Positions 1,989 to 26,140 of a stretch of 64,000 bases of DNA are shown one piece after another. A model generated the notes under the pieces. The model had not been told where the DNA came from, made no database searches, and was given only the letters and a program-made list of their open reading frames with translations. Numbering within the stretch: position 1 is the stretch's first letter; each line of letters starts with the position of its first letter. The stretch spans positions 310,001-374,000 of the forward strand of contig NZ_JAJFZN010000003.1 of assembly GCF_020731145.1 (NCBI RefSeq), in the 5' to 3' direction. The DNA comes from Sneathiella sp. HT1-7 (lineage in GTDB: Bacteria; Pseudomonadota; Alphaproteobacteria; Sneathiellales; Sneathiellaceae). Both the position numbers and the translations under genes were made by a program.

Positions 1989-2000
1989 GTACAGATTGAA

Positions 2001-9066: not shown

Positions 9067-10361
9067 GTGAAATTACAAAAACTGCTTCGCCGGTGGCAAG
9101 CCGGCCTCTATTGAAAACCCTGACCCCTTGGATCGGTTTCCTGATCTTGCTGTTGGCATTGCCGAATATTTTCTCGTCAAACGTCGGACTCTATACGATG
9201 AACCTGATGGGGATTTTTATCATTTTTGCCCTGTCCTATAATATGCTGCTCGGGCAGGGGGGGATGCTGTCCTTTGGCCATGCCGTTTATTTCGGCCTTG
9301 GCGGGTTCATGTCGGTTCATTTCATGAATTATATCGAGGATGGAGATTTTACCTTCCCGATGTACTTGATCCCGATATTCGGGGGCCTGATCGGGCTGGT
9401 CTTCGGTATTATAATTGGGAGCTTCTCGACCCGACGGGCCGGGACAGTCTTTGCGATGATCTCCCTCGGTGTCGGGGAATTGATGGCCGCCAGTTCTCTT
9501 ATCTTCGTTGCGTTCTTCGGCGGCGAGGAGGGTGTAAGCGGGGACCGCACCACTGGCCCTGAGCTGATGGGGATTAATTTTGGGCAGGATATCCATATCT
9601 ATTACCTGATCGCTGGCTGGGTCTTTGTAACCGTCGCCCTGATGTATCTTTTTTCACGTACACCGGCTGGACGGATGGCCAACGCGGTCCGCGACAATGC
9701 GGAGCGGGCGGAGTTTGTTGGCTACAGCCAGCGTAAAGTACGCTTCGTCTCCTTCTGTGCCTCGGGCTTTTTTGCGGGGATTGCTGGCGGGTTGTTCGCT
9801 CTGAATTTTGAGATTGTGACGGAAGAGAACCTGAATGCGCTGACTTCGGGCACGGTGTTGCTGATGGCCTATATTGGCGGGGTCGGATTTTTCATTGGTC
9901 CGATTGTCGGCGCGGTTGTCTTTACTCTCCTGCAAAGCATCCTCAGCAACTACACGGATATCTGGCAGCTTTATGTTGGTATCCTTTTTGTCCTGACGGT
10001 CATGTATGTGCCGCAAGGGCTGACGGGCATTATTGTGATGCATACGGCGGCGTGGCGCATGAGACGGATCGGCTTGCTTGTGCTGCCGTATCTGCGCGCG
10101 GGAATTCCGGCGCTGGCCATGCTGACGGGGATCGCCACCTTTCTGGAGACCATTCATCATATGCGCAGCTCTGTTGAAGGCGAAACGGCAATGAGTTTGA
10201 TGGGGGTCGATTTTGACAGCCATGGCATTGTGACCTGGATCGTCATTCTGGCGTTGGTCGTTGTTGGGGGTTATCTGACGCGGAGTCAATTGCCGCAGCT
10301 CAGGGACGCATGGGAAATGGCGAATAAACCTCCTGCTAAGGCAGAAGGAGCGGGATCATGA
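9063..10361 (+). CDS. LivM-type ABC transporter permease with C-terminal extension
   Basis: The 432-residue membrane protein carries the LivM landmark GQGGMLSFGHAVYFGLGG and pairs with LivH to form the channel. Typical members end soon after the VPQGLTGII segment; here about 100 more residues follow, with two further hydrophobic stretches (around LVLPYLRAGIPALAML and WIVILALVVVGGYL). Start and stop both overlap neighbours by four bases, so translation is coupled through the operon. The role of the extension is unknown. Confidence 0.86.
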   Translation: MSEITKTASPVASRPLLKTLTPWIGFLILLLALPNIFSSNVGLYTMNLMGIFIIFALSYNMLLGQGGMLSFGHAVYFGLGGFMSVHFMNYIEDGDFTFPMYLIPIFGGLIGLVFGIIIGSFSTRRAGTVFAMISLGVGELMAASSLIFVAFFGGEEGVSGDRTTGPELMGINFGQDIHIYYLIAGWVFVTVALMYLFSRTPAGRMANAVRDNAERAEFVGYSQRKVRFVSFCASGFFAGIAGGLFALNFEIVTEENLNALTSGTVLLMAYIGGVGFFIGPIVGAVVFTLLQSILSNYTDIWQLYVGILFVLTVMYVPQGLTGIIVMHTAAWRMRRIGLLVLPYLRAGIPALAMLTGIATFLETIHHMRSSVEGETAMSLMGVDFDSHGIVTWIVILALVVVGGYLTRSQLPQLRDAWEMANKPPAKAEGAGS

Positions 10362-11110
10362 CTGCCGCGATTGAGCTTACGGATCTGCGCAAGAGTTTCG
10401 GTCCGACAGAAATTATCCGTGGCGTCAACCTGACGATAGAAAAGGGGGAACGGCATGCGATAATTGGCCCCAATGGCGCCGGAAAATCTACATTGTTTCA
10501 CCTTATCAGTGGTCGATATAACGTCAGTGGCGGTTCGGTTAAGCTGCATGGTGAGAATATCAGTAATTTGCCGCCCTATGAGATTTACCGCAAAGGGCTT
10601 TCCAGAAGCTTTCAGGTCACTAATATTTTCCCGAATATGAGCGTGTTCGAGAATGTCCGTTGCGGTCTAATGTGGGTTAAGGATTATAAATATTCATTCT
10701 GGCATCTGGTTGATCGGCAACGGGAGTTGAACGAGAGAACAGCGGAAGTGATCGAGGAGATCGGTCTCACGTCCCGGCAGCATATTCCGGCTGGCGTTCT
10801 GACTTATGCCGAGCAGCGGGCGCTGGAGATCGGAATCTCGGCGGCAGGGGGCGCAGATGCCATTATGCTTGACGAACCGACAGCAGGCATGAGCCATAGC
10901 GAGACCGATCAGGCAATAGAGCTGATCCGCAAGATCACAGATGGAAAAACACTGGTTATGGTGGAGCATGACATGGGTGTTGTCTTCGATCTCGCGGACC
11001 GGATTTCTGTCCTGGTCTATGGTGAAATCATTGCTACCGACACACCGGAAAATATCAGGAATTCCAAGGCGGTGCAGGAAGCCTATCTCGGAGCGGAGGC
11101 AGAAGAGTGA
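10358..11110 (+). CDS. LivG-type ABC transporter ATPase
   Basis: The 250-residue ATPase has Walker A GPNGAGKS (37-44), a Q-loop in SRSFQVTNIFP, a signature LTYAEQRALEIG replacing the usual LSGGQ as in many LivG proteins, Walker B AIMLDEPTAGM and a switch His in VMVEHDMG. It energises uptake from the cytoplasmic face together with LivF. It overlaps LivM by four bases. Confidence 0.9.
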   Translation: MTAAIELTDLRKSFGPTEIIRGVNLTIEKGERHAIIGPNGAGKSTLFHLISGRYNVSGGSVKLHGENISNLPPYEIYRKGLSRSFQVTNIFPNMSVFENVRCGLMWVKDYKYSFWHLVDRQRELNERTAEVIEEIGLTSRQHIPAGVLTYAEQRALEIGISAAGGADAIMLDEPTAGMSHSETDQAIELIRKITDGKTLVMVEHDMGVVFDLADRISVLVYGEIIATDTPENIRNSKAVQEAYLGAEAEE

Positions 11111-11805
11111 TGCTTGAAGTAAATGATTTACATGCCTTCTACGGAAAAAGCCATATTCTGCAAGGCGTTAACTTTCATGTTGGCGAGGGGGAGATCGTCT
11201 CGCTTCTCGGCCGCAATGGTGTGGGCCGCTCAACGACGATCAAGGCAATCATGGGTGAAGTGCCGCCACATGGATCAATAAAGTTTCGTGGGAAGGAAAT
11301 TTCCGGCCTAAGGGAGCATGAAATTGCCCATCTCGGCCTTGGTTATGTTCCGGAAAATCGAGATGTCTTTCCCGGCATGACGGTGCGTCAGAATCTGATC
11401 ATGGGCATCAAAAACATGAAAAAGAAGGGCCGCTGGGCAATGGAGGATATGTTCGACATGTTCCCTAACTTACGGGAGCGGGCCGATGTTGACGCTGGCG
11501 TCCTTTCTGGCGGAGAGCAACAGATGCTGACCATGTGCCGGACTTTGATGGGGGACCCGGACCTGGTGATGATCGACGAGCCGACAGAAGGTCTGGCCCC
11601 CAAGATTGTGACACAGGTAGGGGATCTGTTAAGCGAAATTGCCAAGCGCGGCGTTTCCATCCTTCTTGTAGAGCAAAAGCTTGCCATTGCTCTTCGTATA
11701 TCACATCGCTTGTATGTCATGGGCCATGGGCATATGGTGTATGAAGGAACCCCGGATGAGTTGAAGGCCAACGAGCAGATCCGCAAAGAGTGGCTGGAGG
11801 TTTAG
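11110..11805 (+). CDS. LivF-type ABC transporter ATPase with Lys-to-Arg Walker A
   Basis: The 231-residue ATPase has a signature LSGGEQQML and Walker B LVMIDEPTEGLAP as in LivF. Its Walker A reads GRNGVGRST, with Arg at residue 40 where Lys normally contacts the ATP phosphates; the codon is CGC. Arg-type P-loops may exist in parts of this family, but the change could make this site slow or non-catalytic beside a normal LivG. The start is ATG at 11110 (TGATG overlap) or GTG at 11107; GGAGG serves either. Confidence 0.88.
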   Translation: MLEVNDLHAFYGKSHILQGVNFHVGEGEIVSLLGRNGVGRSTTIKAIMGEVPPHGSIKFRGKEISGLREHEIAHLGLGYVPENRDVFPGMTVRQNLIMGIKNMKKKGRWAMEDMFDMFPNLRERADVDAGVLSGGEQQMLTMCRTLMGDPDLVMIDEPTEGLAPKIVTQVGDLLSEIAKRGVSILLVEQKLAIALRISHRLYVMGHGHMVYEGTPDELKANEQIRKEWLEV

Positions 11806-11853
11806 GCGGCTCCATTTGACCAAATGATCCCGGGGCGCGGGGGAATAAGAAAA

Positions 11854-14800
11854 ATGAGTGAAGCGGCTAAAATCAGCCTTGATGACAAATATGAGCTTGA
11901 AAGCGGGCAGGTGTTTATTACCGGCACGCAGGCACTTGTGCGCATACCGATTATGCAGCGACAGCGCGATGCGGCGGCGGGCCTGAAAACTGGCGGATTT
12001 ATTTCCGGCTATCGCGGTTCCCCTCTCGGCCTCTATGATCAGAGTCTATGGAAAGCGAAGCCTTTTCTTCAGAATAATGATATTCACTTTCAGCCAGGTG
12101 TGAACGAGGATCTTGCGGCAACAAGCATCTGGGGCTCGCAGCAGCTTCCCATGTTCGGCAAGACGGATTTCGATGGTGTCTTCGGCATCTGGTACGGAAA
12201 AGGGCCAGGCGTTGACCGCTCCGGGGATGCGTTCAAGCATGGCAATATGGCGGGCACATCAGAAAATGGCGGTGTTCTCGTCCTGATGGGCGATGATCAT
12301 ATGTCGAAGTCCTCGACTGTTGCGCATCAGAGTGAACAGGCGCTGATGGCATCGATGATCCCGGTACTCAATCCCGCGACAGTACAAGAATATCTCGATT
12401 ACGGCCTCTATGGCATTGCGATGTCCCGCTATAGTGGCGCTTGGGTAGGCATGAAATGCCTGACCGACACGGTCGAAAGTTCGGCAACTGCCTATGTCGG
12501 GCCGGATCGCGTGGATATTGTCATTCCTGACGATATTGATCCGCCTGCGGATGGCGTGCATATTCGCTGGCCCGATACTCCGCTCGCTCAGGAAACGCGC
12601 CTGTTGCGGCATAAGATCCCGATGGTCAAGGCGTTTGTCCGGGCCAACCGGCTTGATAAAATAACCACTGATTCAAACGAGCGACGGTTCGGTATTGTGA
12701 CCACCGGAAAATCCTGGTTGGATGTGGAGCAGGCGCTCAGCGATCTCGGTATCCATGAGAAGGAGATCGAGGAAATTGGCTTGTCCGTTTATAAGGTCGC
12801 CTGCCCCTGGCCGCTGGAGCCTGAAGGACTGATTGAATTTGCCGTTGGACTGGATGAAATTCTGGTCATCGAGGAAAAGCGTAGCCTGATCGAGGATCAG
12901 ATCGCAAGGATCCTCTACGGGATGGAAGTGCATCCGATGCTGATCGGCAAGGAAGATGAGGAAGGCGAGATGTTGCTCCCTTCCGACGGGGAACTTACCC
13001 CGGCACTGGTTGCCCGGGCGATTGCGTCTCGCCTCAAGCTTCGTGATTTGCCCGATAGCGTGATGGAGGGGATCAGCGTTGCCGAAGCTCGAGAAAGCGG
13101 TAATGCGATGCCTGCCGCACCGGTCACGCGTTCACCCTGGTTCTGTTCGGGCTGTCCGCATAATTCCTCCACCAATGTGCCGGAAGGAAGTCGCGCGATG
13201 GCGGGGATTGGTTGTCACACCATGACAATTCACATGCCAAACCGGAGAACCGAAACCTATACCCATATGGGAGCGGAGGGAGCCAACTGGATTGGCCAGT
13301 CTCCCTTCACGAATGAAAAACATATCTTCCAGAATTTGGGCGATGGTACCTATTATCATTCTGGCTTACTTGCTATTCGGGCGGCCTGTGCTGCGGATGT
13401 GAATATCACCTATAAAATCCTGTTCAACGATGCAGTGGCATTGACCGGCGGTCAGCCTTTTGACGGGCCGCTCTCGCCTTGGCTAATCAGTCAGCAAGTA
13501 CATGCGGAAGGGGTCAAGCAGGTTGTCGTCGTAACAGATGAGCCGGACAAATACGCCAGCGATACGAAATGGGCACCGGGCGTCAAGATTTTCCACCGCG
13601 ACGACCTTGACAAGGTACAGCGCGACCTTCGTGAAGTTGAGGGTGTGACGGCACTGATCTATGACCAGACTTGCGCCGCCGAAAAACGCCGCCGTCGCAA
13701 GCGCGGCACTTTCCCTGATCCTGCGAAGCGCGCTTTTATCAATGAGCTGGTCTGCGAGGGCTGCGGTGATTGCGGTGTGGTTTCCAACTGCGTGTCAGTA
13801 AAACCGCTGGAAACAGATTTTGGCCGCAAACGTGTGATCGATCAGTCGAACTGTAACAAGGACTTCTCCTGCGTGAAGGGATTCTGCCCGAGCTTTGTGA
13901 CCGTCGAAGGCGGTGGTCTCAAAAAGCCGGAGAAGAAGGAAGTATCAACCACCGAGATAGATATGATGAACCCGGCGGCGGGCTTGCCGGAACCAGCGAC
14001 TCCTCCGATCAATGGAACCTACAATATTCTGGTGACCGGCATTGGCGGCACCGGCGTGATCACTGTCGGCGCATTGCTTGGCATGGCGGCGCATGTGGAA
14101 GGGAAGGGTGCTTCTATCCTTGACCAGACGGGCCTCGCGCAGAAGAACGGCGCGGTGATGAGCCATGTGCGTATTGCAAAATCAGCTTCCGAACTTGCGG
14201 GAACTCGCATTCCCAGCCGTCAGACAGACGTTGTTGTCGGTTGTGATTTGGTGGTTGCCGCAAGTCAGGACGCGTTGCAAACCTATCACCTTGGCCGAAC
14301 CAAGGCGATCATCAATGATTATGTTGTGCCGGTCGCAGCCTTTACGCTCATCCCGGACCTTGCAATGGATCGGGAGACTCTGACCGACCTGTTAAGCCAG
14401 AGCCTCGGTCGGGAGCAGACGGAGTTTATCGACAGCACGACACTTGCGACGGCCTTGATGGGCGATTCCATTGCGGCGAACCTGTTCCTTTTAGGGTACG
14501 CGTTTCAGCAGGGAACAATACCGCTTTCGCTCAAATCCATTGAAACAGCGATAGAGCTTAATGGCATCGCGGTTGACGCCAACAAGCGAAGCTTCGCTTG
14601 GGGCCGTAAGGCCGCCGCCAGCCGGAAAGAGGTCGAAAAAATCGCTTTGCCGGAATCCTCGGCAGACGTCATCGAGATTGAAACTCTGGATAACATGATT
14701 GAAAAGCGCAGCGACTTCCTGAAAGGGTATCAGAATAGTCGCTACGCCAAACGCTATCTGAAGCTGATCGAGGCGGTCGGCAAGGCGGAGGCGGCAGTTA

Positions 14801-15342
14801 AGCCCGGCTCCACGGTGCTGACCGAGGCTGTCGCGCGCTACTATTTCAAGCTGATGGCCTACAAGGATGAATATGAGGTTGCACGGCTCTATACGGATGG
14901 CAGCTTTACGAAAAAGCTGAATGACCAGTTTGAGGGGGACTTCAAGCTCAAGTTCCATCTCGCCCCGCCGATCTTTGCCAAGAAGAACCCGGAAAATGGC
15001 CATCTCATCAAGCAGGAGTTCGGCCCCTGGATGATGAAGGCTTTTGGCCTGCTAGCCAAGTTCAAGGGTTTGCGCGGGACGCCGCTCGATCCGTTTGGCA
15101 ACACCGAGGAGCGAAAATCCGAACGCGCGCTGATCACGGAATATGCCGACACGATGACCGATATCGCCGCGAAGCTCACCAAGAACAATCTTGCGCTTGC
15201 CGTCGAGATAGCCTCGGTGCCAGAGCATATTCGTGGCTTTGGTCATGTGAAGGAGCAGCATCTGAAAACCGCGAAGGCCGAGCGGGAAAACCTGCTTGAT
15301 CGCTTCGAAAAAGGGGACGTGGAAGCCCTCGCCGCGGAATAG
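11854..15342 (+). CDS. fused indolepyruvate:ferredoxin oxidoreductase family protein
   Basis: The 1,162-residue protein joins the alpha and beta subunits of thiamin-dependent 2-oxoacid oxidoreductases. An N-terminal pyrimidine-binding domain (SGYRGSPLG) precedes a TPP/Mg region with CSGCPHNSS near 433, a cysteine-rich Fe-S region (CEGCGDCG near 634, then CVKGFC), a gamma-type domain with GIGGTGVITVGALLG near 727, and a C-terminal domain. Family members convert indolepyruvate or other aryl- or branched 2-oxo acids plus CoA to the acyl-CoA and reduced electron carrier. The ATG at 11854 has GGGGGA ahead. It follows livF by 48 bases and likely uses the imported compound. Confidence 0.9.
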   Translation: MSEAAKISLDDKYELESGQVFITGTQALVRIPIMQRQRDAAAGLKTGGFISGYRGSPLGLYDQSLWKAKPFLQNNDIHFQPGVNEDLAATSIWGSQQLPMFGKTDFDGVFGIWYGKGPGVDRSGDAFKHGNMAGTSENGGVLVLMGDDHMSKSSTVAHQSEQALMASMIPVLNPATVQEYLDYGLYGIAMSRYSGAWVGMKCLTDTVESSATAYVGPDRVDIVIPDDIDPPADGVHIRWPDTPLAQETRLLRHKIPMVKAFVRANRLDKITTDSNERRFGIVTTGKSWLDVEQALSDLGIHEKEIEEIGLSVYKVACPWPLEPEGLIEFAVGLDEILVIEEKRSLIEDQIARILYGMEVHPMLIGKEDEEGEMLLPSDGELTPALVARAIASRLKLRDLPDSVMEGISVAEARESGNAMPAAPVTRSPWFCSGCPHNSSTNVPEGSRAMAGIGCHTMTIHMPNRRTETYTHMGAEGANWIGQSPFTNEKHIFQNLGDGTYYHSGLLAIRAACAADVNITYKILFNDAVALTGGQPFDGPLSPWLISQQVHAEGVKQVVVVTDEPDKYASDTKWAPGVKIFHRDDLDKVQRDLREVEGVTALIYDQTCAAEKRRRRKRGTFPDPAKRAFINELVCEGCGDCGVVSNCVSVKPLETDFGRKRVIDQSNCNKDFSCVKGFCPSFVTVEGGGLKKPEKKEVSTTEIDMMNPAAGLPEPATPPINGTYNILVTGIGGTGVITVGALLGMAAHVEGKGASILDQTGLAQKNGAVMSHVRIAKSASELAGTRIPSRQTDVVVGCDLVVAASQDALQTYHLGRTKAIINDYVVPVAAFTLIPDLAMDRETLTDLLSQSLGREQTEFIDSTTLATALMGDSIAANLFLLGYAFQQGTIPLSLKSIETAIELNGIAVDANKRSFAWGRKAAASRKEVEKIALPESSADVIEIETLDNMIEKRSDFLKGYQNSRYAKRYLKLIEAVGKAEAAVKPGSTVLTEAVARYYFKLMAYKDEYEVARLYTDGSFTKKLNDQFEGDFKLKFHLAPPIFAKKNPENGHLIKQEFGPWMMKAFGLLAKFKGLRGTPLDPFGNTEERKSERALITEYADTMTDIAAKLTKNNLALAVEIASVPEHIRGFGHVKEQHLKTAKAERENLLDRFEKGDVEALAAE

Positions 15343-15347
15343 AAGAG

Positions 15348-15674
15348 ATGGCCGTCGATCCACATCTCGTGGAACAGCTTCGGGATGTGCTGGGCGATCA
15401 TCCCGGCCTTTCCGAGAAAAAAATGTTCGGCGGCATCTGTTTTATGCTCAATGGGAATATGCTCTGTGCAACGCGTGTGGGACGCTTTATGTTCCGCGTC
15501 GGTAAAGAGCGTGAAGCTGAAGCGCTGGACATGCCCGGCGCGGAACCGATGCAGCATGGCGCGCGCAGGATGCCGGGTTTCATCTGGGTGGACGCGGGCG
15601 AGGCGATCGAGACCGGGCTGGATCGCTGGACCTCGCTTGCGCTTCGCTATGTCGGCGGAATGCCGCCGAAATAG
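15348..15674 (+). CDS. TfoX/Sxy N-terminal domain protein
   Basis: The 108-residue protein contains the TfoX_N pattern KKMFGGICFMLNGNMLCA and a C-terminal AEALDMPGAEPM...GFIWVDAG stretch usual for stand-alone TfoX_N proteins. Full TfoX/Sxy regulates competence in gammaproteobacteria; the short alphaproteobacterial forms have no settled role. It starts five bases after the oxidoreductase stop and is probably co-transcribed. No competence genes are near. Confidence 0.82.
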   Translation: MAVDPHLVEQLRDVLGDHPGLSEKKMFGGICFMLNGNMLCATRVGRFMFRVGKEREAEALDMPGAEPMQHGARRMPGFIWVDAGEAIETGLDRWTSLALRYVGGMPPK

Positions 15675-15747
15675 CCCTCCATGATTGACCAGCGCGTCTG
15701 CAAGAGGTAGGAAGAAACCTCCAGTACAATAATAAGGTAAGCGCTAA

Positions 15748-16713
15748 ATGGCTGAAATTGCCGGGCTTGTTTTTCCCCTGTTCGGGCTGATTCTGCTCGG
15801 TTATCTGGCGGCGCGGATCACCAAACAGCCGGCCGAGGCCATGGGCTGGCTCAACACCTTTATCATTTACGTCGCGTTGCCCTGCCTGTTCTTCAAGCTC
15901 TTGTCGAAGACGCCGATTGAAAAGCTGACGAGCTGGGAATTCATCACCACTAATATCTCGACCACCTTCGTGATTTTCCTTGCCGTCTATGCTATTGCCC
16001 GGCTGATGACGAAGGCCACAACACCGGAGGCAACCATACAGGGCCTTGCGGGTGCTTATGGCAACATCGGCTATATGGGGCCCGGAATTGCACTGCTCAC
16101 TTTCGGCGAAGAGGCCGCCGTTCCCCTCGCGCTGATCTTCTGTTTTGAGAATATCCTGCATTTCATCGTCGCGCCGACGATGATGGCGCTGAGCAGCGGG
16201 AAGGAGCAACATGTCGGCGCCCTGCTTGGCCAAATCGCGAAGAAAGTCTTCCTGCATCCCTTTATCATTGCGACTATTGTCGGCGTTGCCGCGGCGATTG
16301 TGCAATTCACGCCGCCGCTGCCCATCGAGCGACTGATCGACTATCTCGCGCAGGCCGCCGCGCCCTGCGCCCTCTTCGCCATGGGGGTGACGCTCGCGCT
16401 CCGGCCGTTGAAGCGCGTGCCGGGGGAACTTTCCTTCATCATCCCCTTCAACCTCGTGGTGCATCCGATTGCGATGTATCTCTCGCTTAGCTTCTTTGGC
16501 GATTTTGATCCGCTCTGGGTCTATACAGCCGTGCTGCTCGCGGCGCTACCGACCGCGACGAACGTCTTCGTCATCGCCCAGCAATATGGCGTCTGGGTCG
16601 AGCGTGCCTCCGCCACCATCCTGCTCACCACCATGATCTCCGTCGTCACCGTGACGCTGCTGCTCTACGCCATGACCACCGGCCTGATGCCCGCGGATTT
16701 ATTTGTGAATTAG
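15748..16713 (+). CDS. AEC-family (auxin efflux carrier) permease
   Basis: The 321-residue membrane protein has about ten hydrophobic segments and the AEC features GYLAARITKQP near the start, YGNIGYMGPGIALL in the middle and LAALPTATNVFVIAQQYG near the end. Bacterial members move malonate, malate or other organic acids. AAGG lies ten bases ahead of the ATG. Its stop at 16711-16713 directly abuts the stop of the AT-rich KAP gene on the other strand. The substrate is unknown. Confidence 0.85.
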   Translation: MAEIAGLVFPLFGLILLGYLAARITKQPAEAMGWLNTFIIYVALPCLFFKLLSKTPIEKLTSWEFITTNISTTFVIFLAVYAIARLMTKATTPEATIQGLAGAYGNIGYMGPGIALLTFGEEAAVPLALIFCFENILHFIVAPTMMALSSGKEQHVGALLGQIAKKVFLHPFIIATIVGVAAAIVQFTPPLPIERLIDYLAQAAAPCALFAMGVTLALRPLKRVPGELSFIIPFNLVVHPIAMYLSLSFFGDFDPLWVYTAVLLAALPTATNVFVIAQQYGVWVERASATILLTTMISVVTVTLLLYAMTTGLMPADLFVN

Positions 16714-18339
16714 TTAGTCTTCATCTCTACTAAGGTCTACTAACTGCCCAGCCGAACTAATTAATCTAGGATACTGTGCTATTTTGCTGAGACCGCTGTA
16801 ATTGTGTGAGTAATGCTCAAGATTGAATTCATCATTTAAGATTTTTATGCTCCATTGATCTTCAATGCTGGGAAAATTAGAAGGTCCATAGAATTCCGCC
16901 TTAGTATCAAAGAAGTTTTTATTTCCATTGTTCCAAACGAGATTCAGAAGGCCTGAAAACTCAATATTTTTATTGGACTTAAATGATTTATTATTGAATA
17001 ATTCTTGCTTGGGAGATGGAAGTTTATAGATAAAGCTCCAAGCATTTTCGGAACGTAGTTCTTTTAGATGGCTAGGTAAACTTTGAGAAGCCAATTGATT
17101 AAAAGTTCTTTTTTGCTGGTATAGAATAATCAATGGAACCATTACAATAAGTTCTATTTTCGCGGAATTGCGCCATACCGTAATTACATTTCGAAGCAAT
17201 TCGAAGCATTGTTCAATATCACGAAGTTCTAGCAAAAACGCATTAAATGTACACTGGAGAAATTTCAGATCAAGCTGATCATCATCCGTAAATTCCTCGA
17301 AAGGTGACGACAAATTATTAACATCTGAAAGATGTAGTTTATAGAGATGTTCAACAAACTGACTTATCTCCGGACTTTCAAAAACATAGGGGCGATCGAA
17401 AAAGCGATTTAAATACCGTTTTGCATCAAACTCACTTCCGTAAACAGCTTTGATTGAATGTTGAAGTTGGTCTGTATCCGTTGCCAAAATGAATACGACA
17501 TTGTCAACATTGAATAGATGTTTGACCCTTTCAAGCAATTCAATTGCATATGTCGGGCGGCATCGATCCAGCTCATCTACAAGTACAAAAAGCGGGATAT
17601 TTACAGTTTTATTTTCCTCGATACCGATTAGCAGTTTAGTCAGGCTTTTGCGAAATTTCGTGGTGACTTCTTTTGTTTTTAGGAAACTTCTTAATAAATC
17701 TTCCGCATGTTTATTCGTGAGTTTTTCTACAGTTTCACTGACTGCTTTTTCAATAGATGCTTCGTCTACTACCTGTTCTGTGGAATCTTGCTCTACAGAG
17801 TCTGAGATAAGTTCTGTGATTTCAGAAAGACCTCCACCAACTACTTTTTTACTACCAGTTATTGCTGCATGCTTCAAACCTGTGGTGAGGATTTGCAGCC
17901 CAGATTTTTTCGTAACATTTAAAAGGTTCTGTAGTTTGCGTTTACCCTTAAAGTAAGGGCATAGTGTATTGTTGATTTCTGCAATTATTGGGATTAACGG
18001 ATCTTCTGCATGATCATCTTCCCAAGCATTAATATAAACTACCAAATGGTTATCGAGTCTCAACTGCTCGGCAAATCGCTCCAGAAAAAACGTTTTCCCT
18101 CCACCCCATTTTGCATCAAGGTTTATAACATATGATCCTGATCGTTTCTCATTGGTGCGCTCCTTCATTCGTTCTGTCAAAAATCTAAATAAAAAGTCGG
18201 CGTCTTTCCATCGCTCCAGATGATCGCCTATCCATATCTCTTTGAGCTTTTCTTTCCGAATGATCAGTTCTTCCGTCAATTTCATCTCCCTCTCGTATTT
18301 CGAGAAAGATATCACATCATATTCCTCTATCCTTGTCAT
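16714..18339 (-). CDS. KAP-family P-loop NTPase, AT-rich (probable foreign gene)
   Basis: The protein (541 residues from this ATG) has a KAP-type Walker A in DAKWGGGKTFF and a Walker B with the family pattern FVLVDELDRCRPTYAIELLERVKHLF, followed by FILATDTDQLQHSIKAVYG. KAP NTPases include F-plasmid PifA, which blocks phage T7, and many proteins of unknown function. Base use differs strikingly from both neighbours: the 60 bases at 16921-16980 hold only 20 G+C. No integrase or partner gene is present. Other starts are TTG 18363 and ATG 18285, the latter with GAGAGG close by. A defence role is only a possibility. Confidence 0.82.
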   Translation of the reverse strand: MTRIEEYDVISFSKYEREMKLTEELIIRKEKLKEIWIGDHLERWKDADFLFRFLTERMKERTNEKRSGSYVINLDAKWGGGKTFFLERFAEQLRLDNHLVVYINAWEDDHAEDPLIPIIAEINNTLCPYFKGKRKLQNLLNVTKKSGLQILTTGLKHAAITGSKKVVGGGLSEITELISDSVEQDSTEQVVDEASIEKAVSETVEKLTNKHAEDLLRSFLKTKEVTTKFRKSLTKLLIGIEENKTVNIPLFVLVDELDRCRPTYAIELLERVKHLFNVDNVVFILATDTDQLQHSIKAVYGSEFDAKRYLNRFFDRPYVFESPEISQFVEHLYKLHLSDVNNLSSPFEEFTDDDQLDLKFLQCTFNAFLLELRDIEQCFELLRNVITVWRNSAKIELIVMVPLIILYQQKRTFNQLASQSLPSHLKELRSENAWSFIYKLPSPKQELFNNKSFKSNKNIEFSGLLNLVWNNGNKNFFDTKAEFYGPSNFPSIEDQWSIKILNDEFNLEHYSHNYSGLSKIAQYPRLISSAGQLVDLSRDED

Positions 18340-18475
18340 AAATGATGTATGCTCTCTGACCAAGGCTACATCTCAATAATTCCCAGCCCTAGGGTGTCAC
18401 AACAATTGCGTTCCCCGCTTGGCTTCGGTAAAAGGGGCGCAGCGAATTAATTGTGGATCAGGAGCGGAAATCCCT

Positions 18476-20155
18476 ATGGCGTCTTATCAGTATATCTATG
18501 TGATGAATGGTCTGTCGAAGACCTATCCGGGCGGCAAGCAGGTTCTTAAAGACATTCGGCTTTCCTTCTTCCCAGGCGCGAAGATTGGTGTGCTGGGCCT
18601 GAACGGCTCGGGTAAGTCGACGCTCTTGAAAATCATGGCCGGGATCGAGACGGAATTCACCGGGGAGGCCTGGGCCGCCGATGGCGTAAAGGTCGGCTAT
18701 CTGGCGCAGGAGCCGGAGCTGGACCCGGCAAAGGACGTCCTTGGCAATGTCATGGATGGCGTGCATGAGAAGAAAGCGCTCCTCGATAAATTCAACGAGA
18801 TATCAGCCCGGTTTGCGGAAGACCTCACCGATGATGAGATGAATGACCTGATCGCGGAGCAGGGCGAGTTGCAGGAGCAGATCGACGCGCAGAACCTCTG
18901 GGATCTAGATCGGGAAGTGGAAATTGCAATGGATGCCCTCCGTTGTCCTGCGGGCGATGCCGATGTCACCAAGCTCTCGGGCGGGGAACGTCGCCGCGTC
19001 GCGCTCTGCCGCTTGCTCCTCTCCCAGCCCGATATGCTCCTGCTTGATGAGCCGACCAACCATCTCGACGCCGAAAGCGTCGCCTGGCTGGAGCGCTTCC
19101 TGCATGACTATTCCGGCACTGTTGTTGCCGTGACCCATGACCGTTACTTCCTTGATAACGTCGCGGGCTGGATTTTGGAACTCGATCGCGGCCATGGTAT
19201 CCCGTGGGAAGGCAATTATTCAAGCTGGCTGGAGCAGAAGGAAAAACGCCTCGCCCAGGAAGGAAAATCCGAGGATGCGCGGCGGAAAACGCTGGATCGG
19301 GAGCTGGAATGGATCCGGCAGGGACCGAAGGGGCGTCAGACGAAATCAAAAGCGCGTATCAGTGCCTATGAGGATCTGCTTGCCGAGCAGAATTCGAAGC
19401 AGGCCGACGCCATGCAGATTTACATCCCGGCCGGTCAGCGGCTCGGCGATCTGGTGGTGGAGGCGGAGCATGTCACCAAGGGGTATGGCGACAAGCTGCT
19501 GATTGATGATCTCTCCTTCAAACTCCCGGCGGGGGCAATTGTCGGCGTAATCGGACCGAACGGCGCGGGTAAAACGACGTTATTCAAGCTTATGACGGGT
19601 AAGGAACAGCCCGATTCTGGCAGCTTCAAGGTTGGTCCGACGGTGCAGCTTGGCTATGTCGATCAGGATCGTGACACCCTCGATCCGAACAAGAATGTCT
19701 GGGAGGAAATCTCCGAGGGGAACGAGGTGATCTCCTTGGGTAAAAAGGAAATCAACAGCCGCGCCTATGTCTCGGGCTTCAATTTCAAGGGCTCCGACCA
19801 GCAGAAGAAGGTCGGCCAGCTCTCGGGCGGGGAGCGAAACCGTGTCAATCTCGCAAAGATGCTGAAATCCGGCTCCAACTTCCTCCTCCTTGACGAACCA
19901 ACCAACGACCTCGATGTCGATACGCTTCGCGCACTCGAAGAAGCCTTGCTGCAATTCGCCGGTTGCGCCGTGGTCATCAGCCATGATCGCTGGTTCCTTG
20001 ATCGCGTGGCGACCCATATGCTCGCCTATGAGGGCGACAGTCATGTCGAATGGTTCGAAGGTAACTTTGAGGCTTATGAGGAAGACAAGCGTCGTCGTCT
20101 GGGCAAGGAAGCGACCGAACCCCACCGCATCAAATACAAGCCTATAACCCGCTAG
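18476..20155 (+). CDS. ettA: energy-dependent translational throttle EttA (ABC-F ATPase)
   Basis: The 559-residue protein has two ABC domains and no membrane segment: Walker [10 protein letters not shown] and GPNGAGKTT, signatures [13 protein letters not shown] and [13 protein letters not shown], and Walker [12 protein letters not shown] and [11 protein letters not shown]. The start [26 protein letters not shown] and the end [21 protein letters not shown] are characteristic of EttA, which binds the ribosomal E site and gates early elongation when energy is low. The ATG at 18476 was chosen because the family begins there. It converges with the GST gene, three bases between stops. Confidence 0.93.
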
Positions 20156-20158
20156 GGG

Positions 20159-20788
20159 TTATTTAGCGGCATGTTCGGCTATGACCCGTGCGACGGCGGG
20201 GCGGGCCAGCATGGCCTTACGATGAGCCAGCAGTTTAGGGAAGTCCGCAGGGTCAACGCCGTCACCTTCCATCCATTGAGTGATGGTGAAGAGATAGATA
20301 TCGGCGATACTGTAATTCTCTCCCATCACCCAGGGCCCTTCGAACATCTCATCCTCAATCAGGTGAAAGCATTCTTCCATATTGCTTTTGACCTTGCTTG
20401 CGATCGCCTCGATAGCGGCTGTGTTCTGCTCGTCCACCCAGCGCCGTCCGCGCTTGCGGTGGGCATGATTGACATGCACAGTGGAGCAGAGATAGTTGTT
20501 GAAGGACTGGAGCTGCGCTAGATCGTAGGGATCTTCTGGCGGCGGAAAAGCGGAGGCGCCACAAACTTGCGCGGTATAGAGCAGGATTGCCGGAGTTTCC
20601 GTCAGGATGCCACGATCCGTCACCAATGCGGGCACGCGACCTTTGGGGTTGATTGCCAGATATTCAGGTTTGGTATGCTCCATTATCGCGGCATTTAGCT
20701 TTTTTGCCTCGTAGTCTGTCCCGCTTTCTTCAAGTGCAATGTGAGGTGCGAGCGCGATGGTTCCGGGATTATAGTAAAGTTTCAGCAT
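20159..20788 (-). CDS. glutathione S-transferase family protein
   Basis: The 209-residue protein starts MLKLYYNPGTIALAPHIALEESG, a thioredoxin-like GST N-terminal domain, with the cis-Pro/Ser region KGRVPALVTDRGILTETPAIL for glutathione binding and an all-helical C-terminal domain (NYSIADIYLFTITQWM). It would conjugate or reduce small electrophiles in the cytoplasm; the substrate is unknown. The ATG at 20788 follows AGGA closely, while the frame extends to 20818 without a better start. Confidence 0.87.
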   Translation of the reverse strand: MLKLYYNPGTIALAPHIALEESGTDYEAKKLNAAIMEHTKPEYLAINPKGRVPALVTDRGILTETPAILLYTAQVCGASAFPPPEDPYDLAQLQSFNNYLCSTVHVNHAHRKRGRRWVDEQNTAAIEAIASKVKSNMEECFHLIEDEMFEGPWVMGENYSIADIYLFTITQWMEGDGVDPADFPKLLAHRKAMLARPAVARVIAEHAAK

Positions 20789-20940
20789 TTCCTGTCCTTG
20801 TGATTTATTTTCGGTCACATTACCCGTTAATTTGCCGGAGGGGGATTATTTTATTTGAGATAATGACGATGGCAATTAATGGATGAAGAAACGGAAAAGA
20901 CTTCTATACTATGCGTCATGCCCCTAACAGCAGAGGTGAC

Positions 20941-21822
20941 ATGAGAGCGTTTGTTTGCCTGATCATGATGATGGGTCTCGCCGCCTGTACAGGCACGGTA
21001 CGGCAGGCGGAGAATAATATCTGGCCCGCAGATCCGCAAGAGAGATCCGCGGCGCAGCGTGTCGTTGCGAAGATGGAGGGAAATGTTCTTCTCGCAACGC
21101 CGCCCGGCATGGAATTTTCTCATCGACGGCTGGTGGGCAATATCATCCAAGATTACTATACCTATCGTCTCGACCGGCTTCAGGGCCTGGATCTGCTGAA
21201 CGCCATTCGCCGGAACATGGCCAGCAACTATGTGCGGGAGCAAGGGTATCGCGCTTGCCGTGACCGCGACATTCGCTATCTGCTCGATAAGGGATACGTC
21301 CATGAATTTCGGGTGGCAATCTTTGGCACCAAAAAATCGGGTGTTGAAACAGATAAAATCAGCAAGGGATTTTGCATCGCGAATGAAGTGCCGCTTATCG
21401 ACCAAAATGCTATCGATGCGCGCTACAGCAAGATTCGGTATTGGCCAAATGGCGACCGGATAGATCCGCGCTTGATCGAGCAAGTCATGGGCTCCTTTCG
21501 GGTGGCAACAGCGAAGTATCAGCCATCCGACCTAGGTAAGTTCACCATTAGAACCGTCAGCACTGAGGCTGATGGCTTGATGCTGACTCGAAACATGGAA
21601 AAAGAACAAAAAATCACCATAAAGGGGAGCAAATATTGGCCGCAGCATATCAAGGGTCAAGCGCTGGAGAAGAGTTGTACAAACAAGGCTTCTCTAACGG
21701 CTTTGATGGTGGGGGGAGTCTATCGGTTTCAGGTGGACGTCAAGGTTAAGCAAGAAATTATTGAAGATGGTGCGTTTACAATTAGCTATCCGGACTGTTT
21801 ACTTTATAACAAAAAGCCTTGA
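20941..21822 (+). CDS. predicted lipoprotein of unknown function
   Basis: The 293-residue product begins with a lipoprotein signal ending in the lipobox LAAC (MRAFVCLIMMMGLAAC), so it should be anchored in the envelope. I do not recognise the rest. It contains many basic and aromatic residues and several cysteines, with a C-terminal part rich in Lys (KVKQEIIEDG). The ATG at 20941 has AGAGGTG five bases ahead; the frame is open 30 bases further. It precedes the rfb genes by about 50 bases but a shared function is not evident. Confidence 0.72.
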   Translation: MRAFVCLIMMMGLAACTGTVRQAENNIWPADPQERSAAQRVVAKMEGNVLLATPPGMEFSHRRLVGNIIQDYYTYRLDRLQGLDLLNAIRRNMASNYVREQGYRACRDRDIRYLLDKGYVHEFRVAIFGTKKSGVETDKISKGFCIANEVPLIDQNAIDARYSKIRYWPNGDRIDPRLIEQVMGSFRVATAKYQPSDLGKFTIRTVSTEADGLMLTRNMEKEQKITIKGSKYWPQHIKGQALEKSCTNKASLTALMVGGVYRFQVDVKVKQEIIEDGAFTISYPDCLLYNKKP

Positions 21823-21874
21823 CGACAATATGCCAGAGTTTCCGGCAGCGTGGTGTGTGAGGACGTGATTGAGC

Positions 21875-22444
21875 ATGCAGATTGAAGAGACGGCAATTGC
21901 AGACGTAAAAATCCTGTGTCCAAAAAAATTTGGAGATGACAGGGGCTTCTTTTCCGAGGTCTGGAATGCTCAGACGCTGAAAGAAGCGGGACTGGACCTT
22001 ACTTTCGTGCAGGATAATCATGCCCATAACGCCGAGGCGGGGGTCGTGCGGGGTTTGCACTATCAACTAGCACCGAAGGCACAGGGAAAACTCGTGAGGG
22101 CTCTGCGCGGTGCTATTATCGATGTTGCGGTGGATATCCGGGTGGGCTCCCCGACCTTTGGACAGCATGTTGCTGTGGAATTATCTGCGGAAAACTGGCG
22201 TCAACTCTGGGTTCCAGCCGGCTTCGCGCATGGCTACTGTACATTGCAGCCGGATACCGAGATCGTCTACAAAGTAACCGACTATTACAGTCCAGAGCAT
22301 GACTGCGGCATTTTCTGGAATGATCCAGATTTGAATATTAATTGGTCTGTATCGGCAGAAAAGGCAATTCTTTCAGAAAAAGATAAGATTTTGCCTTTAT
22401 TAAAAGATCAGACAAGATTATTCGAATTCAAGGAAACCAGATGA
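21875..22444 (+). CDS. rfbC: dTDP-4-dehydrorhamnose 3,5-epimerase
   Basis: The 189-residue cupin enzyme shows FFSEVWNA, the catalytic-His region [19 protein letters not shown] and the [13 protein letters not shown] segment of RmlC. It epimerises dTDP-4-keto-6-deoxyglucose at C3 and C5 on the way to dTDP-L-rhamnose. The first ATG is at 21875; a TTG two codons earlier is less likely. It overlaps rfbB by four bases (ATGA) and opens a three-gene set lacking rfbA. Confidence 0.92.
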
Positions 22445-23493
22445 CTGTTTTTGTCACAGGGGGGGCGGGCTTTATTGGTTCCGCACTTGCCCGCGACCTG
22501 ATTAATCAGGGCAAAGAAGATGTAATGATTATCGACAAGCTGACCTATGCCGGATCGCTTGAAAGCCTGAAACCTGTCAGCAATAGCCCACATTATCATT
22601 TTTCACAGACTGATATCTGTGATCGCGATGGCATCGGGGAGTTGTTCAGTAAATACAAACCAACGGCGGTTTATCATTTGGCCGCAGAATCCCATGTGGA
22701 CAGGTCGATCGATGGCCCTGCGGATTTTGTCCAGACTAATCTTGTAGGCACTTTCACCATGCTGGATGCAGCCTATCAATTTTGGCGCGCGCTCGATGGA
22801 TCGGCGAAAGATGATTTCCGGTTCCTGCATGTCTCGACAGATGAAGTCTATGGGGAACTCGGACCCGAAGGGTTGTTTTCGGAAACCAGCGCGTATGATC
22901 CCAATTCTCCATACTCCGCGAGCAAAGCCGGATCCGACCATCTGGCGCGGGCATGGCATCGCACCTTTGGCCTGCCGGTTTTGGTGACTAACTGTTCCAA
23001 CAATTACGGTCCATACCAGTTTCCGGAAAAACTTCTTCCGGTGATTATCCTGAACTGCCTAAAAGGCAAGGAATTGCCAGTCTACGGCAAAGGGGAAAAT
23101 ATCCGCGATTGGCTTTATGTGGAAGATCATGCTGCTGCCCTGCAACAGGTTGTCACCTCTGGCAAGATCGGGGAGACTTACATGATCGGCGGCCGGGCAG
23201 AGCGGACAAATATTGATATTGTACGCAGCATCTGCCGGATCATGGATAAAAAATTCCCGGAAAAGGCCCCGCATGAAGACTTGATCCGCTTTGTCACCGA
23301 CCGGCCGGGGCATGATGCCCGCTACGCGGTGGATTGCTCTAAAATAGAGGCGGAGCTTGGCTGGTCCCAATCTCTCAATCTGGAAACCGGTTTGGAAAAG
23401 ACCGTCGACTGGTATCTTGAAAATCTTGATTGGGTGAAGGCAGTTGCCGCGGATTACACTCAGGAACGTCTCGGCCTGGGAACGAGCGGCTGA
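22441..23493 (+). CDS. rfbB: dTDP-glucose 4,6-dehydratase
   Basis: The 350-residue extended SDR enzyme has the NAD motif GGAGFIG (7-13), catalytic Thr133-Asp134-Glu135 in [10 protein letters not shown], and the YSASK motif with Tyr158 and Lys162. It makes dTDP-4-keto-6-deoxyglucose from dTDP-glucose, the step before RfbC. Its stop overlaps the rfbD start in TGATG, showing translational coupling. Confidence 0.94.
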
Positions 23494-24344
23494 TGAAGAT
23501 ACTGGTCACGGGCGCAGGCGGGCAGGTGGGGCAGGCGCTGCAAAATCTTGCCTCTTCTCATGAGATTAACGTCATTGCTCTTGATCGACAGGCACTCGAT
23601 ATTACAGATCAATCCGCTGTCCGGGAGCAGGTTCGCAATCTCTCCCCGGATGCGGTGATCAACTCCGCTGCTTATACTGCCGTGGACAAAGCGGAAGAGG
23701 ACGTAGACGCAGCTTTCGCGATTAATGCCGAGGGAGCGGAAAACTTGGCTCTTGCTTGCGCCGATGCGGATATTCCGTTTCTGCATATTTCCACGGATTT
23801 TGTCTTCGATGGTAAAAAGGATGGCGCCTATCTTGAAGATGATGCTATTGCACCGCTCAGTGTGTATGGCAAAAGCAAAGGCGACGGAGAAGCGCGCGTC
23901 GCGGCAGCATCCACAAAGTACATTATCCTGCGGACAGCGTGGGTGTTTGGTGGTGCGCAGAATTTTGTCACCACCATGCTTCGTCTCGCGCAAACCCATA
24001 AGGAATTGAATATTGTCGATGATCAGACCGGCGGACCGACTGCGGCGAATGATATCGCGGCAAGCCTTCTAAAGATTGCCAAACATACCCATAAGGCCGG
24101 GTTTCAGTCTTGGGGAGTATACCATTATTGTGGTGCACCCGCCGTTACCTGGTTTGGTTTTGCAAAAGCCATTTTCGCTCACTCATCTGTCGTCCCGGCT
24201 CTCAACCCCATCCCGACAGAAGACTATCCGGTTCCCGCGGAGCGACCAAAGAATTCCGTGCTCGACTGTACAAAAATCAAACAGGTTTTTGGCATTGACC
24301 AGCCTGATTGGCAAAAGGCATTATCGGATATATTGGGAAAATAA
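23493..24344 (+). CDS. rfbD: dTDP-4-dehydrorhamnose reductase
   Basis: The 283-residue SDR protein has GAGGQVG at the N-terminus, HISTDFVFDG and the catalytic YGKSK motif in SVYGKSKGDGE, as in RmlD. It reduces dTDP-4-keto-rhamnose to dTDP-L-rhamnose for surface polysaccharide. The ATG at 23493 was chosen because it overlaps the rfbB stop and begins [10 protein letters not shown]; an earlier in-frame start at 23430 would lie inside rfbB. Confidence 0.93.
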   Translation: MKILVTGAGGQVGQALQNLASSHEINVIALDRQALDITDQSAVREQVRNLSPDAVINSAAYTAVDKAEEDVDAAFAINAEGAENLALACADADIPFLHISTDFVFDGKKDGAYLEDDAIAPLSVYGKSKGDGEARVAAASTKYIILRTAWVFGGAQNFVTTMLRLAQTHKELNIVDDQTGGPTAANDIAASLLKIAKHTHKAGFQSWGVYHYCGAPAVTWFGFAKAIFAHSSVVPALNPIPTEDYPVPAERPKNSVLDCTKIKQVFGIDQPDWQKALSDILGK

Positions 24345-24365
24345 ATCAAAACAAGGACACCCCCC

Positions 24366-24797
24366 ATGGATCGGCAGGATTTCAACTTCTTTCATCCATT
24401 TCGTGTGCGCTATTCGGAAATTGATGCGCAGAGTGTGGTATTTAATGCCCACTATCTGACCTATTTCGATACAGCAATTTCGGAATATTTTCGCCATCTG
24501 GGCTATGATCATCAGGACTATGTGAAACGGACCGGGCTTGATTTTCATCTCGTGAAATCACTGGTTCTGTACGAGAAACCTATCCTGTTTGACGCTGAGA
24601 TCGAGGTGGGGTGCCGGGTTGAAAAAATTGGCCGCACCTCCATCACCTTCGTGCTCGCGATATTCGCAAAAGGGGAAGATACCCGCTATTGCACGGGCGA
24701 AATTATTTGGGTCAACACTAACCAGACGACCCACAAAACCGAACCTGTCGATGACACTATCCGTGAGATGTTCGAGAAATTTGAGATCAAAGAGTAA
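24366..24797 (+). CDS. hot-dog fold acyl-CoA thioesterase (YbgC/4HBT-like)
   Basis: The 143-residue protein has the 4HBT-type active-site pattern RVRYSEIDAQSVVFNAHYLTYFD, with the Asp and the NAHY segment expected for hydrolysis of an acyl-CoA thioester. It lies 21 bases after rfbD with AAGGA eight bases ahead of the start and may be co-transcribed, though a link with rhamnose is not obvious. Its acyl substrate cannot be told. A second YbgC-type gene occurs in the tol cluster at 51330. Confidence 0.84.
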   Translation: MDRQDFNFFHPFRVRYSEIDAQSVVFNAHYLTYFDTAISEYFRHLGYDHQDYVKRTGLDFHLVKSLVLYEKPILFDAEIEVGCRVEKIGRTSITFVLAIFAKGEDTRYCTGEIIWVNTNQTTHKTEPVDDTIREMFEKFEIKE

Positions 24798-24846
24798 TAG
24801 CGTAGTGCTTCAACCCTAATTCAGTGAAGATGAGTTACGGGTTGCC

Positions 24847-25426: not shown

Positions 25427-25505
25427 TCCATTCCTTAAATCAACCGAAGGTTAAGCCATCACAATAGCGGCTTCGCATGACATGATAAAGCCTTAAGGGC
25501 ATATT

Positions 25506-26105: not shown

Positions 26106-26140
26106 GACCAACTTTCCAATATCGCCCTCTTCCCGGCTAG

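What the first reader, a model, noticed from the sequence alone, without database searches (positions are those of the whole stretch)
16714..18363. Lone AT-rich KAP NTPase inserted between AEC and ettA genes
The gene is far richer in A+T than either neighbour (20 G+C in the 60 bases at 16921-16980) and its stop touches the AEC stop with no spacer. KAP NTPases include PifA, a phage-exclusion protein. There is no integrase, tRNA or repeat at the borders, so it looks like a single-gene transfer, possibly a solitary defence gene.
Basis: partly seen in the sequence, partly recalled or inferred. Interest (0 to 1): 0.52.

Follow-up and report, generated by a model that had tools for sequence, protein, structure and literature searches.

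The report
Swappable single-gene slot holding KAP ATPase
A lone, foreign-looking ATPase gene sits in a small chromosomal slot whose contents differ from one related bacterium to the next, apparently because the genes on either side recombine between species; the ATPase belongs to a family suspected of blocking viruses, but that has not been tested.

Summary
An intact AT-rich KAP NTPase gene (37% G+C; 58 other window genes 54 ± 2%) lies between an AEC transporter and ettA, stop touching stop, with no integrase, tRNA or border repeat found. It is not a one-off insertion. In 21 of 24 genus genomes where the AEC-ettA junction could be judged, 8 are empty (91-131 bp) and 13 hold cargo: KAP in 3 (nowhere else in the genus), elsewhere a BglII-type restriction-modification pair, a PDDEXK-motif protein of unknown family (2), or TPR, AAA_28, histidine kinase or solute-binding genes. 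AEC and ettA have the lowest or nearly lowest fourfold-site divergence of the genes compared (ranks 1-2 of 21, 1-2 of 17, 2-3 of 44), and the AEC tree rejects the neighbourhood tree (AU 2e-5). This fits exchange by homologous recombination through the flanking genes. KAP itself is far more diverged than its flanks but near the background of other genes, so old vertical descent of KAP in the three carriers is not excluded. KAP matches PADLOC's candidate defence family PDC-S20 (E 8e-86); relatives occur in prophages; the best structural match is RdrA of RADAR. Phage exclusion is the best guess, untested.

The parts
16714..18363 (-). KAP-family NTPase, slot cargo; start uncertain (TTG 18363, ATG 18339, or more likely ATG 18285)
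15748..16713 (+). AEC-type transporter (Mem_trans PF03547), left flank of the slot, with reduced fourfold-site divergence and an incongruent tree
18396..18478 (+). conserved ettA leader, promoter-like by eye; it marks the right border of the slot
   Evidence: alignment of 10 genomes; motif found once in the window with one mismatch, (18 of 100 shuffles also hold one)
16714..18395 (.). the variable slot: in relatives empty or filled with other genes

Best explanation
The KAP gene is one of several interchangeable cargo genes in a small chromosomal slot between the AEC transporter stop codon and the ettA leader. Cargo is swapped between species by homologous recombination in the conserved flanking genes, with no integrase. 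[Shown: different contents at one site; flanks with reduced divergence and conflicting trees. Suggested only: mosaic KAP alleles. Inferred: RecA-type recombination; the vehicle is unknown, and whether KAP itself arrived this way or is an old resident is open.] The encoded protein is an AAA+-type KAP ATPase of the PDC-S20 family, with a long helical insert between Walker A and Walker B and a C-terminal domain. It most likely protects the cell against phages by an ATP-dependent, probably oligomeric, infection-triggered mechanism, as is recalled for PifA and the RdrA ring. [Inferred from family, prophage distribution, a co-slotted restriction-modification pair and fold; untested.]
For: Slot survey: 21 of 24 genus genomes judged, 8 empty, 13 occupied. 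KAP of this type is in 3 of 24 genomes, all three in the slot. G002 has a BglII-type endonuclease plus MT-A70 methylase there. Of 53 window junctions with data, 7 vary by more than 400 bp; AEC-ettA was measured in 8 of 8 comparators and is empty in only one. All fourfold changes, genes of 150 aa or more without KAP: AEC and ettA rank 1-2 of 21 (G000-G015), 1-2 of 17 (G000/G001/G019) and 2-3 of 44 (G000/G017/G021); 1 and 3 of 17 for G000-G001. Fourfold transversions: AEC is 0.91-1.08 of YDL or rfbB across clades but 0.77-0.78 within the close clade. AEC tree against the YDL+rfb tree: AU p 1.6e-5; ettA p 0.0066. By dN G015 is nearer to G000 than G021 is in 3 of 24 genes, AEC being one. PDC-S20 E 7.8e-86. 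112 of 181 pattern-matched viral stretches encode relatives; in 4 of 7 loci looked at, a tape-measure or head gene is near. Walker residues are invariant in all 42 aligned sequences. RdrA is the top fold match: Z 17.6, rmsd 5.1, 277 aligned; next family 13.3.
Against: No phenotype exists. Several cargoes (histidine kinase, solute-binding protein, TPR, AAA_28) have no evident link to defence. KAP's own synonymous divergence is background-like for G000-G015 (fourfold 0.544, rank 14 of 22; 19 non-flank genes 0.462-0.615) and only near the top for G000-G001 (0.703, 17 of 18) and top for G015-G001 (0.645, 9 of 9), so KAP need not be a recent import. For G015-G001 AEC is only 4th of 8. The reference tree comes from the same neighbourhood and places G013 and G015 weakly (61, 65). 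By dS G015 is nearer than G021 in 8 of 24 genes, so AEC is less special by that count, and ettA is not nearer by dN. ettA is somewhat slow across clades (0.80-0.95). AEC shows no gradient towards the slot; the mostly empty clade is near saturation. G015 is a metagenome bin and several genomes are drafts. The fold match covers the ATPase core only (Foldseek TM 0.36).
Confidence: 0.55

Rival explanations
1. The KAP gene was present at this locus in the ancestor of the close clade and descended vertically in G000, G015 and G001, evolving fast in protein sequence; it was lost or replaced in the other members. The slot turns over, but KAP itself is an old resident.
For: Same site and orientation in three species; low G+C kept in all three alleles; fourfold divergence of KAP for G000-G015 equals the background of 19 non-flank genes; another window gene, 20911-21822, shows comparable dN (0.53 and 0.46 against 0.34 and 0.53 for KAP).
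Against: In the YDL+rfb tree the carriers are scattered among G021, G017, G019 and G013, which hold other contents or none, so several losses or replacements are needed. For pairs with G001, KAP is among the most diverged at fourfold sites. Patchy similarity to two different alleles, not formally tested. The two flanks look exchanged while KAP does not, which simple descent of the block does not give.
Confidence: 0.3
2. The slot is an integration site of unseen mobile elements (prophage, transposon or recombinase), and single genes are what remains after element decay.
For: KAP relatives occur in prophages and plasmids, and in one Sphingopyxis record a resolvase gene lies just upstream of KAP.
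Against: No recombinase among the 11 other-cargo proteins scanned; no tRNA in the window part or in the 21 relatives' stretches scanned; no border repeat beyond shuffles in 12 occupied sites. The flank signature is that of homologous recombination.
Confidence: 0.12
3. The cargo moves, but KAP serves membrane, DNA-maintenance or stress functions rather than phage defence.
For: KAP NTPases are functionally broad (recalled); other slot cargoes include a sensor kinase, a solute-binding protein and a TPR protein.
Against: Strong match to a candidate defence family, location near prophage structural genes in 4 of 7 loci looked at, a restriction-modification pair in the same slot, and RdrA as top fold match.
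Confidence: 0.3
4. The low flank divergence is not recombination but strong synonymous constraint or codon bias in AEC and ettA.
For: ettA is 0.80-0.95 of the control genes even across clades, and 0.84 within the mostly empty clade.
Against: AEC is not slow across clades (0.91-1.08 of the controls) yet is 0.77-0.78 within the close clade, and its tree conflicts with its neighbours'.
Confidence: 0.13

Closest known systems
PDC-S20, PADLOC candidate defence family (KAP NTPase)
   Same: KAP ATPase; profile match E 7.8e-86 over residues 34-429.
   Different: Nothing found that separates it; the part beyond residue 429 lies outside the match. A search of the held paper library for the name gave no paper.
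Integrase-less hotspots of horizontal transfer with recombining flanking core genes (Oliveira et al. 2017, PMC5635113; abstract and passages read)
   Same: Conserved flanks, high turnover, no mobility genes found, signs of recombination in the flanking core genes.
   Different: Here the slot takes only about 0.7-2.5 kb, one or two genes; turnover is seen between species of one genus; the genome-wide hotspot statistic was not run.
Core defence hotspots cDHS1/2 of Pseudomonas aeruginosa (PMC10250203; passages read)
   Same: Variable, partly defence-like content between fixed core genes; no single element type explains it.
   Different: cDHS1 ranges from 1 to 224 kb (median 26 kb), and only 29% of cDHS1 sites lack a detectable mobile gene; this slot carries one or two genes and none was found.
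PifA of plasmid F and QatA of the Qat system
   Same: Share the KAP ATPase core.
   Different: Much weaker matches (1.7e-13 and 1.5e-15); QatA is 61.9 bits against an NCBIfam cut-off of 600; the adjoining genes are AEC and ettA.
RdrA of RADAR
   Same: Best solved-structure match of the predicted ATPase core: Z 17.6, rmsd 5.1, 277 residues.
   Different: 14% identity; the solved chains are 781-852 residues long; the adjoining genes are AEC and ettA (no search for RdrB was run).

Membership tests
KAP NTPase (Pfam PF07693) | Profile score above the curated cut-off | tested here: met
   128.9 bits against 20
KAP NTPase (Pfam PF07693) | Intact Walker A and Walker B motifs | tested here: met
   W78 G79 G81 K82 and D255 E256 (numbered from ATG 18339) invariant in all 42 aligned sequences
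KAP NTPase (Pfam PF07693) | Transmembrane helices in the insert between Walker A and B (recalled as common, not universal) | not tested
   The model shows long helices at 134-242, with low confidence at 166-172 and 185-191; no membrane prediction was run
PDC-S20 (PADLOC) | Match to a family profile | tested here: met
   PDLC04959, 7.8e-86; the three other S20 models listed also match
PDC-S20 (PADLOC) | Anti-phage activity | not testable with these tools
   No bench data; one search found no paper holding the name
PifA | Best match to the PifA profile over most of its length | tested here: not met
   48 bits, profile positions 34-247 of 720 only; S20 is far better
QatABCD | QatA score above the curated cut-off | tested here: not met
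   61.9 against 600 bits
QatABCD | qatBCD genes beside it | not tested
   The adjoining genes are Mem_trans and ABC_tran by Pfam; no profile search for QatB, C or D was run
Integrase-less recombination hotspot | Same core-gene borders with different content in relatives | tested here: met
   13 occupied and 8 empty of 21 judged, of 24 genomes
Integrase-less recombination hotspot | No mobility genes in the slot | tested here: met
   None among the window KAP and 11 other-cargo proteins scanned; the 26 residues seen in G012 and a broken frame in G020 were not scanned
Integrase-less recombination hotspot | Excess recombination in the flanking core genes | tested here: met
   Divergence ranks and AU tests, with the caveats given
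Integrase-less recombination hotspot | Genome-wide statistical definition of a hotspot | not tested
   Only junctions of one 64 kb window were compared
Core defence hotspot | Several distinct defence systems occupy the site across strains | tested here: inconclusive
   One clear restriction-modification pair, one candidate family, one nuclease-like unknown; the other cargoes have no strong defence match

The most novel reading that the evidence does not exclude
A genus-wide, integrase-free slot in Sneathiella-like bacteria lets cells exchange one immunity gene at a time through recombination of two unrelated housekeeping flanks. The KAP alleles within it also diversify by recombination among themselves. 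If so, the unknown cargo families (the PDDEXK-motif protein of G019/G012 and the 349-residue protein of G013) would be new single-gene defence systems.
Probability: 0.3. Interest if true: 0.68.

Novelty: new member of a known kind. Interest (0 to 1): 0.48.

Why it matters
It gives a compact test case for how lone defence-type genes spread without a mobile element. A very small site, the same borders in many species, empty sites and several cargoes allow recombination tracts to be mapped directly. It also points to unannotated candidate defence genes that lie alone on chromosomes and would be missed by searches for defence islands. The Pseudomonas hotspot paper leaves open whether such core hotspots are common in other clades (passage read); this may be a small one in an alphaproteobacterial genus.

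Tried and rejected
Gene transfer agent as vehicle: GTA_TIM (PF13547) was found in 0 of 24 genus genomes, while the control rang in Caulobacter, so there is no support for an RcGTA-type agent. Only this one family was tried.

A border repeat or att site: words of 5-9 bases shared by the borders of 12 occupied sites, none longer than the longest of 60 shuffles (mean 6.5-7.2; shuffles of the direct comparison only).

A phage carrying the AEC flank: 6 stretches of viral contigs matched a pattern and none was confirmed; a single-sequence query finds close relatives only.

A solved structure by sequence: none for KAP at E 1 or for the G019 cargo at E 10. Most plasmid relatives listed for the G019 cargo are annotated 'TerD family protein', which Pfam does not support.

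Promoter and terminator scans at the slot gave no more hits than shuffles.

KAP divergence as proof of import: my first reading was that KAP alleles are older than the species. The check does not bear this out for G000-G015 (KAP rank 14 of 22 genes), so the claim was withdrawn, confidence in the best explanation lowered from 0.62 to 0.55, the novel case from 0.35 to 0.30, and the rival of vertical descent raised from 0.17 to 0.30.

Not followed: the neighbours of most of the 80 viral loci (7 loci looked at, 10 proteins). The place of KAP in viral contigs was counted for 42 of 80 loci only, of which 36 lie on contigs of at least 25 kb: 16 within 5 kb of an end, 9.0 expected if uniform. Of six neighbourhoods fetched none was analysed further.

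Literature: searches; for most papers only the search listing was seen. Abstract and passages were read of PMC5635113 and passages of PMC10250203.

Full report
WHAT IS THERE. The minus-strand ORF 16714-18363 (549 aa from TTG) is an intact KAP NTPase. Its G+C (0.371) and GC3 (0.335) lie 6.8 and 5.4 standard deviations below 58 other window genes of 100 aa or more. Its stop abuts the AEC stop. No tRNA lies within 10000-27000 of the window or in 21 stretches from relatives, and no border repeat beats the longest of 60 shuffles in this or 11 other occupied sites.

WHERE IT IS. A contig of the same-genus genome G015 has the length and match of a record titled Sneathiella sp. SAT66, a metagenome bin (34,234 bases), so the genus is Sneathiella or close to it (inference).

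THE SLOT. Of 23 same-genus relatives searched, 20 have a close AEC match. I fetched that place from all 20 and read the AEC-ettA junction beside the window's. G007 ends inside AEC and cannot be judged, which leaves 19 relatives and the window. G012 adds one more, because the 403 bases before its ettA carry the start of a G019-type cargo (26 aa, 73%). So 21 of 24 are judged; G007, G009 and G016 are not. Eight are empty, with 91-131 bp from the last aligned AEC codon to the ettA start: G017, G014, G010, G004, G008, G006, G023, G018. Thirteen are occupied: KAP in G000, G015 and G001; a 454-residue protein with a conserved PDG...E-x-K motif in G019 and, only its first 26 residues seen, G012; a TPR protein in G021; a BglII-type endonuclease with an MT-A70 methylase in G002; AAA_28 in G022; AAA_28 plus a 349-residue unknown in G013; a histidine kinase in G005; a kinase plus a solute-binding protein in G003; a solute-binding protein in G011; a short broken frame in G020. 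In the ten genomes aligned the right border is the same conserved ettA leader and the left border lies at or just after the AEC stop. The PDDEXK reading of the motif is mine, by eye; neither Pfam, PADLOC nor PHROGs names that family.

HOW UNUSUAL THE JUNCTION IS. Of 59 junctions between neighbouring window genes, 53 could be measured in at least one of eight relatives, and 7 vary by more than 400 bp. AEC-ettA was measured in all eight and is empty in only one. Other variable junctions lie nearby (YDL-AEC, ettA-GST, and four between 24.8 and 37.1 kb), so the region as a whole is somewhat plastic. KAP has a hit in 2 of the 8 relatives; the small TfoX-like gene before AEC in 3 of 8. YDL is my short name for the long gene 11824-15342, rfbC and rfbB for 21869-22444 and 22441-23493 (labels by eye).

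SIGNS OF RECOMBINATION. Counting all fourfold changes in genes of 150 aa or more without KAP, AEC and ettA are the two least diverged of 21 genes between G000 and G015 and of 17 among G000/G001/G019; they rank second and third of 44 among G000/G017/G021. For single pairs with G001 the ranks are 1 and 3 of 17 (G000-G001) and, for G015-G001, 4 (AEC) and 1 (ettA) of 8. As fourfold transversions relative to YDL or rfbB, AEC is 0.91-1.08 and ettA 0.80-0.95 across clades; within the close clade they are 0.77-0.78 and 0.75-0.76; within the three mid genomes 0.84-1.03 for both; within the other clade 0.98 and 0.84. So the drop is not intrinsic for AEC and partly intrinsic for ettA. Within ettA the 5' quarter, nearest the slot, is lowest (pS 0.335 against 0.42-0.49); AEC shows no gradient. 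In ten-genome trees AEC pairs G000 with G015 (support 88) and rejects the YDL+rfb tree, in which G000 joins G021 and G017 (support 99): AU p 1.6e-5; ettA also rejects it, p 0.0066. By dN, G015 is closer to G000 than G021 is in 3 of 24 genes (AEC, the GST and one marginal gene); by dS in 8 of 24. Against a strong claim stand the weak placement of G013 and G015 in the reference tree (61 and 65), its origin in the same neighbourhood, draft and binned genomes, and near-saturation in the other clade.

THE KAP ALLELES. KAP is 53-56% identical between G000 and G015 and 41-44% between G000 and G001, while AEC is 96-97 and 89-90%. KAP dS is about 1.8 for G000-G015 and saturated for G001, the flanks 0.5-0.8. 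At fourfold sites of conserved residues KAP differs at 54-72%, the flanks at 28-42%. But other genes of the region are as diverged: for G000-G015 KAP (0.544) ranks 14 of 22 genes, inside the 0.462-0.615 of 19 non-flank genes; for G000-G001 it is 17 of 18, and for G015-G001 9 of 9. So what stands out is that the flanks are unusually alike, not that KAP is unusually old, and vertical descent of KAP from the ancestor of the close clade, with loss or replacement elsewhere, is not excluded. Similarity along KAP is patchy: the C-terminal columns of G000 and G015 have pS 0.43 (other columns 0.49-0.88), near that of the adjoining AEC (0.35), whereas the 5' end and leader of G000 are closer to G001 (0.74 against 0.53 identity in that window). 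This suggests recombination inside the gene, but with three alleles it is not a formal test.

THE PROTEIN. Best family match is PADLOC's PDC-S20, E 7.8e-86, then QatA and PifA far weaker. Walker residues are invariant in all 42 aligned sequences. The AlphaFold2 model (mean pLDDT 82.7, pTM 0.78) shows an AAA+-like core, a helical insert (poor at 166-172 and 185-191) and a C-terminal domain. By fold the top solved relative is RdrA of RADAR: Z 17.6, rmsd 5.1, 277 aligned residues, the next family at 13.3; Foldseek gives E 3e-5 but TM only 0.36, so the core alone matches. BrxC of BREX is listed at Z 12.2, tied with many ordinary AAA+ proteins.

ITS RELATIVES. In 385 genomes of the class, 10 have a match at 1e-20, G000 and G001 among them. 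In plasmids 82 records and in phage records 5 match, none over 80% of the query. In IMG/VR 112 of 181 pattern-matched stretches encode relatives, of which 80 were kept. In the 7 loci whose neighbours I scanned (10 proteins), two have a tail tape-measure gene near, two a head or DNA-pilot gene next to it, one an invertase/integrase, one a late activator; the rest had no match of named function. In G299 a relative lies between a ClpB-type gene and a PNPase-like gene, and in G288 one abuts a convergent TetR gene stop to stop, as here. The 454-residue cargo family likewise lies alone and AT-richer than its neighbours in G018 (0.39 against 0.42-0.52) and G023 (0.42 against 0.48-0.52), between other chromosomal genes. 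Solitary chromosomal placement of such genes therefore recurs.

MECHANISM. Most likely, donor DNA carrying AEC-cargo-ettA recombines with the resident flanks and replaces one cargo, or an empty site, by another, leaving both flanking genes intact. The vehicle is unknown; a gene transfer agent of the RcGTA type is not supported. The KAP product most likely acts as an ATP-driven, probably ring-forming sensor or effector that stops phage infection; this step is inference.

VERDICT. Real, and more informative than a single transfer: a new member of two known kinds, the integrase-less recombination hotspot and the PDC-S20 candidate defence gene.

Noticed in passing
L046 (G002) 1950-3375: The same slot holds a BglII-type endonuclease and an MT-A70 methylase, overlapping by 47 bases: a type II restriction-modification pair.
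   Followed up: partly
L042:6548-7912 (G019); L189:8610-9968 (G018); L190:723-2045 (G023); L182 (G012): A family of about 450 residues without a Pfam or PADLOC match (G019 member scanned) and with a PDDEXK-like motif; in the slot in two species, and alone between other chromosomal genes in two others.
   Followed up: partly
L049:6502-7551 (G013): An AT-rich 349-residue protein without a Pfam match in the slot; one plasmid relative in Paracoccus (38%).
   Followed up: partly
15348-15674: A small TfoX-like gene (label by eye) between the ferredoxin oxidoreductase-like gene and AEC is patchy (3 of 8 relatives), and in G020 this junction holds a further 327-codon open frame.
   Followed up: partly
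20155-20159 and L041, L049, L050: In G015, G013 and G022 an open frame of 354-365 codons, membrane-like by eye, lies between ettA and the GST gene; it is absent in the window.
   Followed up: no
20911-21822: A 303-residue protein evolving very fast (34-56% identity) beside well conserved genes.
   Followed up: no
L048 (G020), slot: The slot content looks like a broken open reading frame, perhaps decaying cargo.
   Followed up: no
L081:769-2949 (G288): A KAP relative abuts a convergent TetR gene stop to stop with no spacer, the same geometry as in the window.
   Followed up: partly
G002:C82:4959-5810: A different KAP protein (open frame 708 aa) elsewhere in G002.
   Followed up: no
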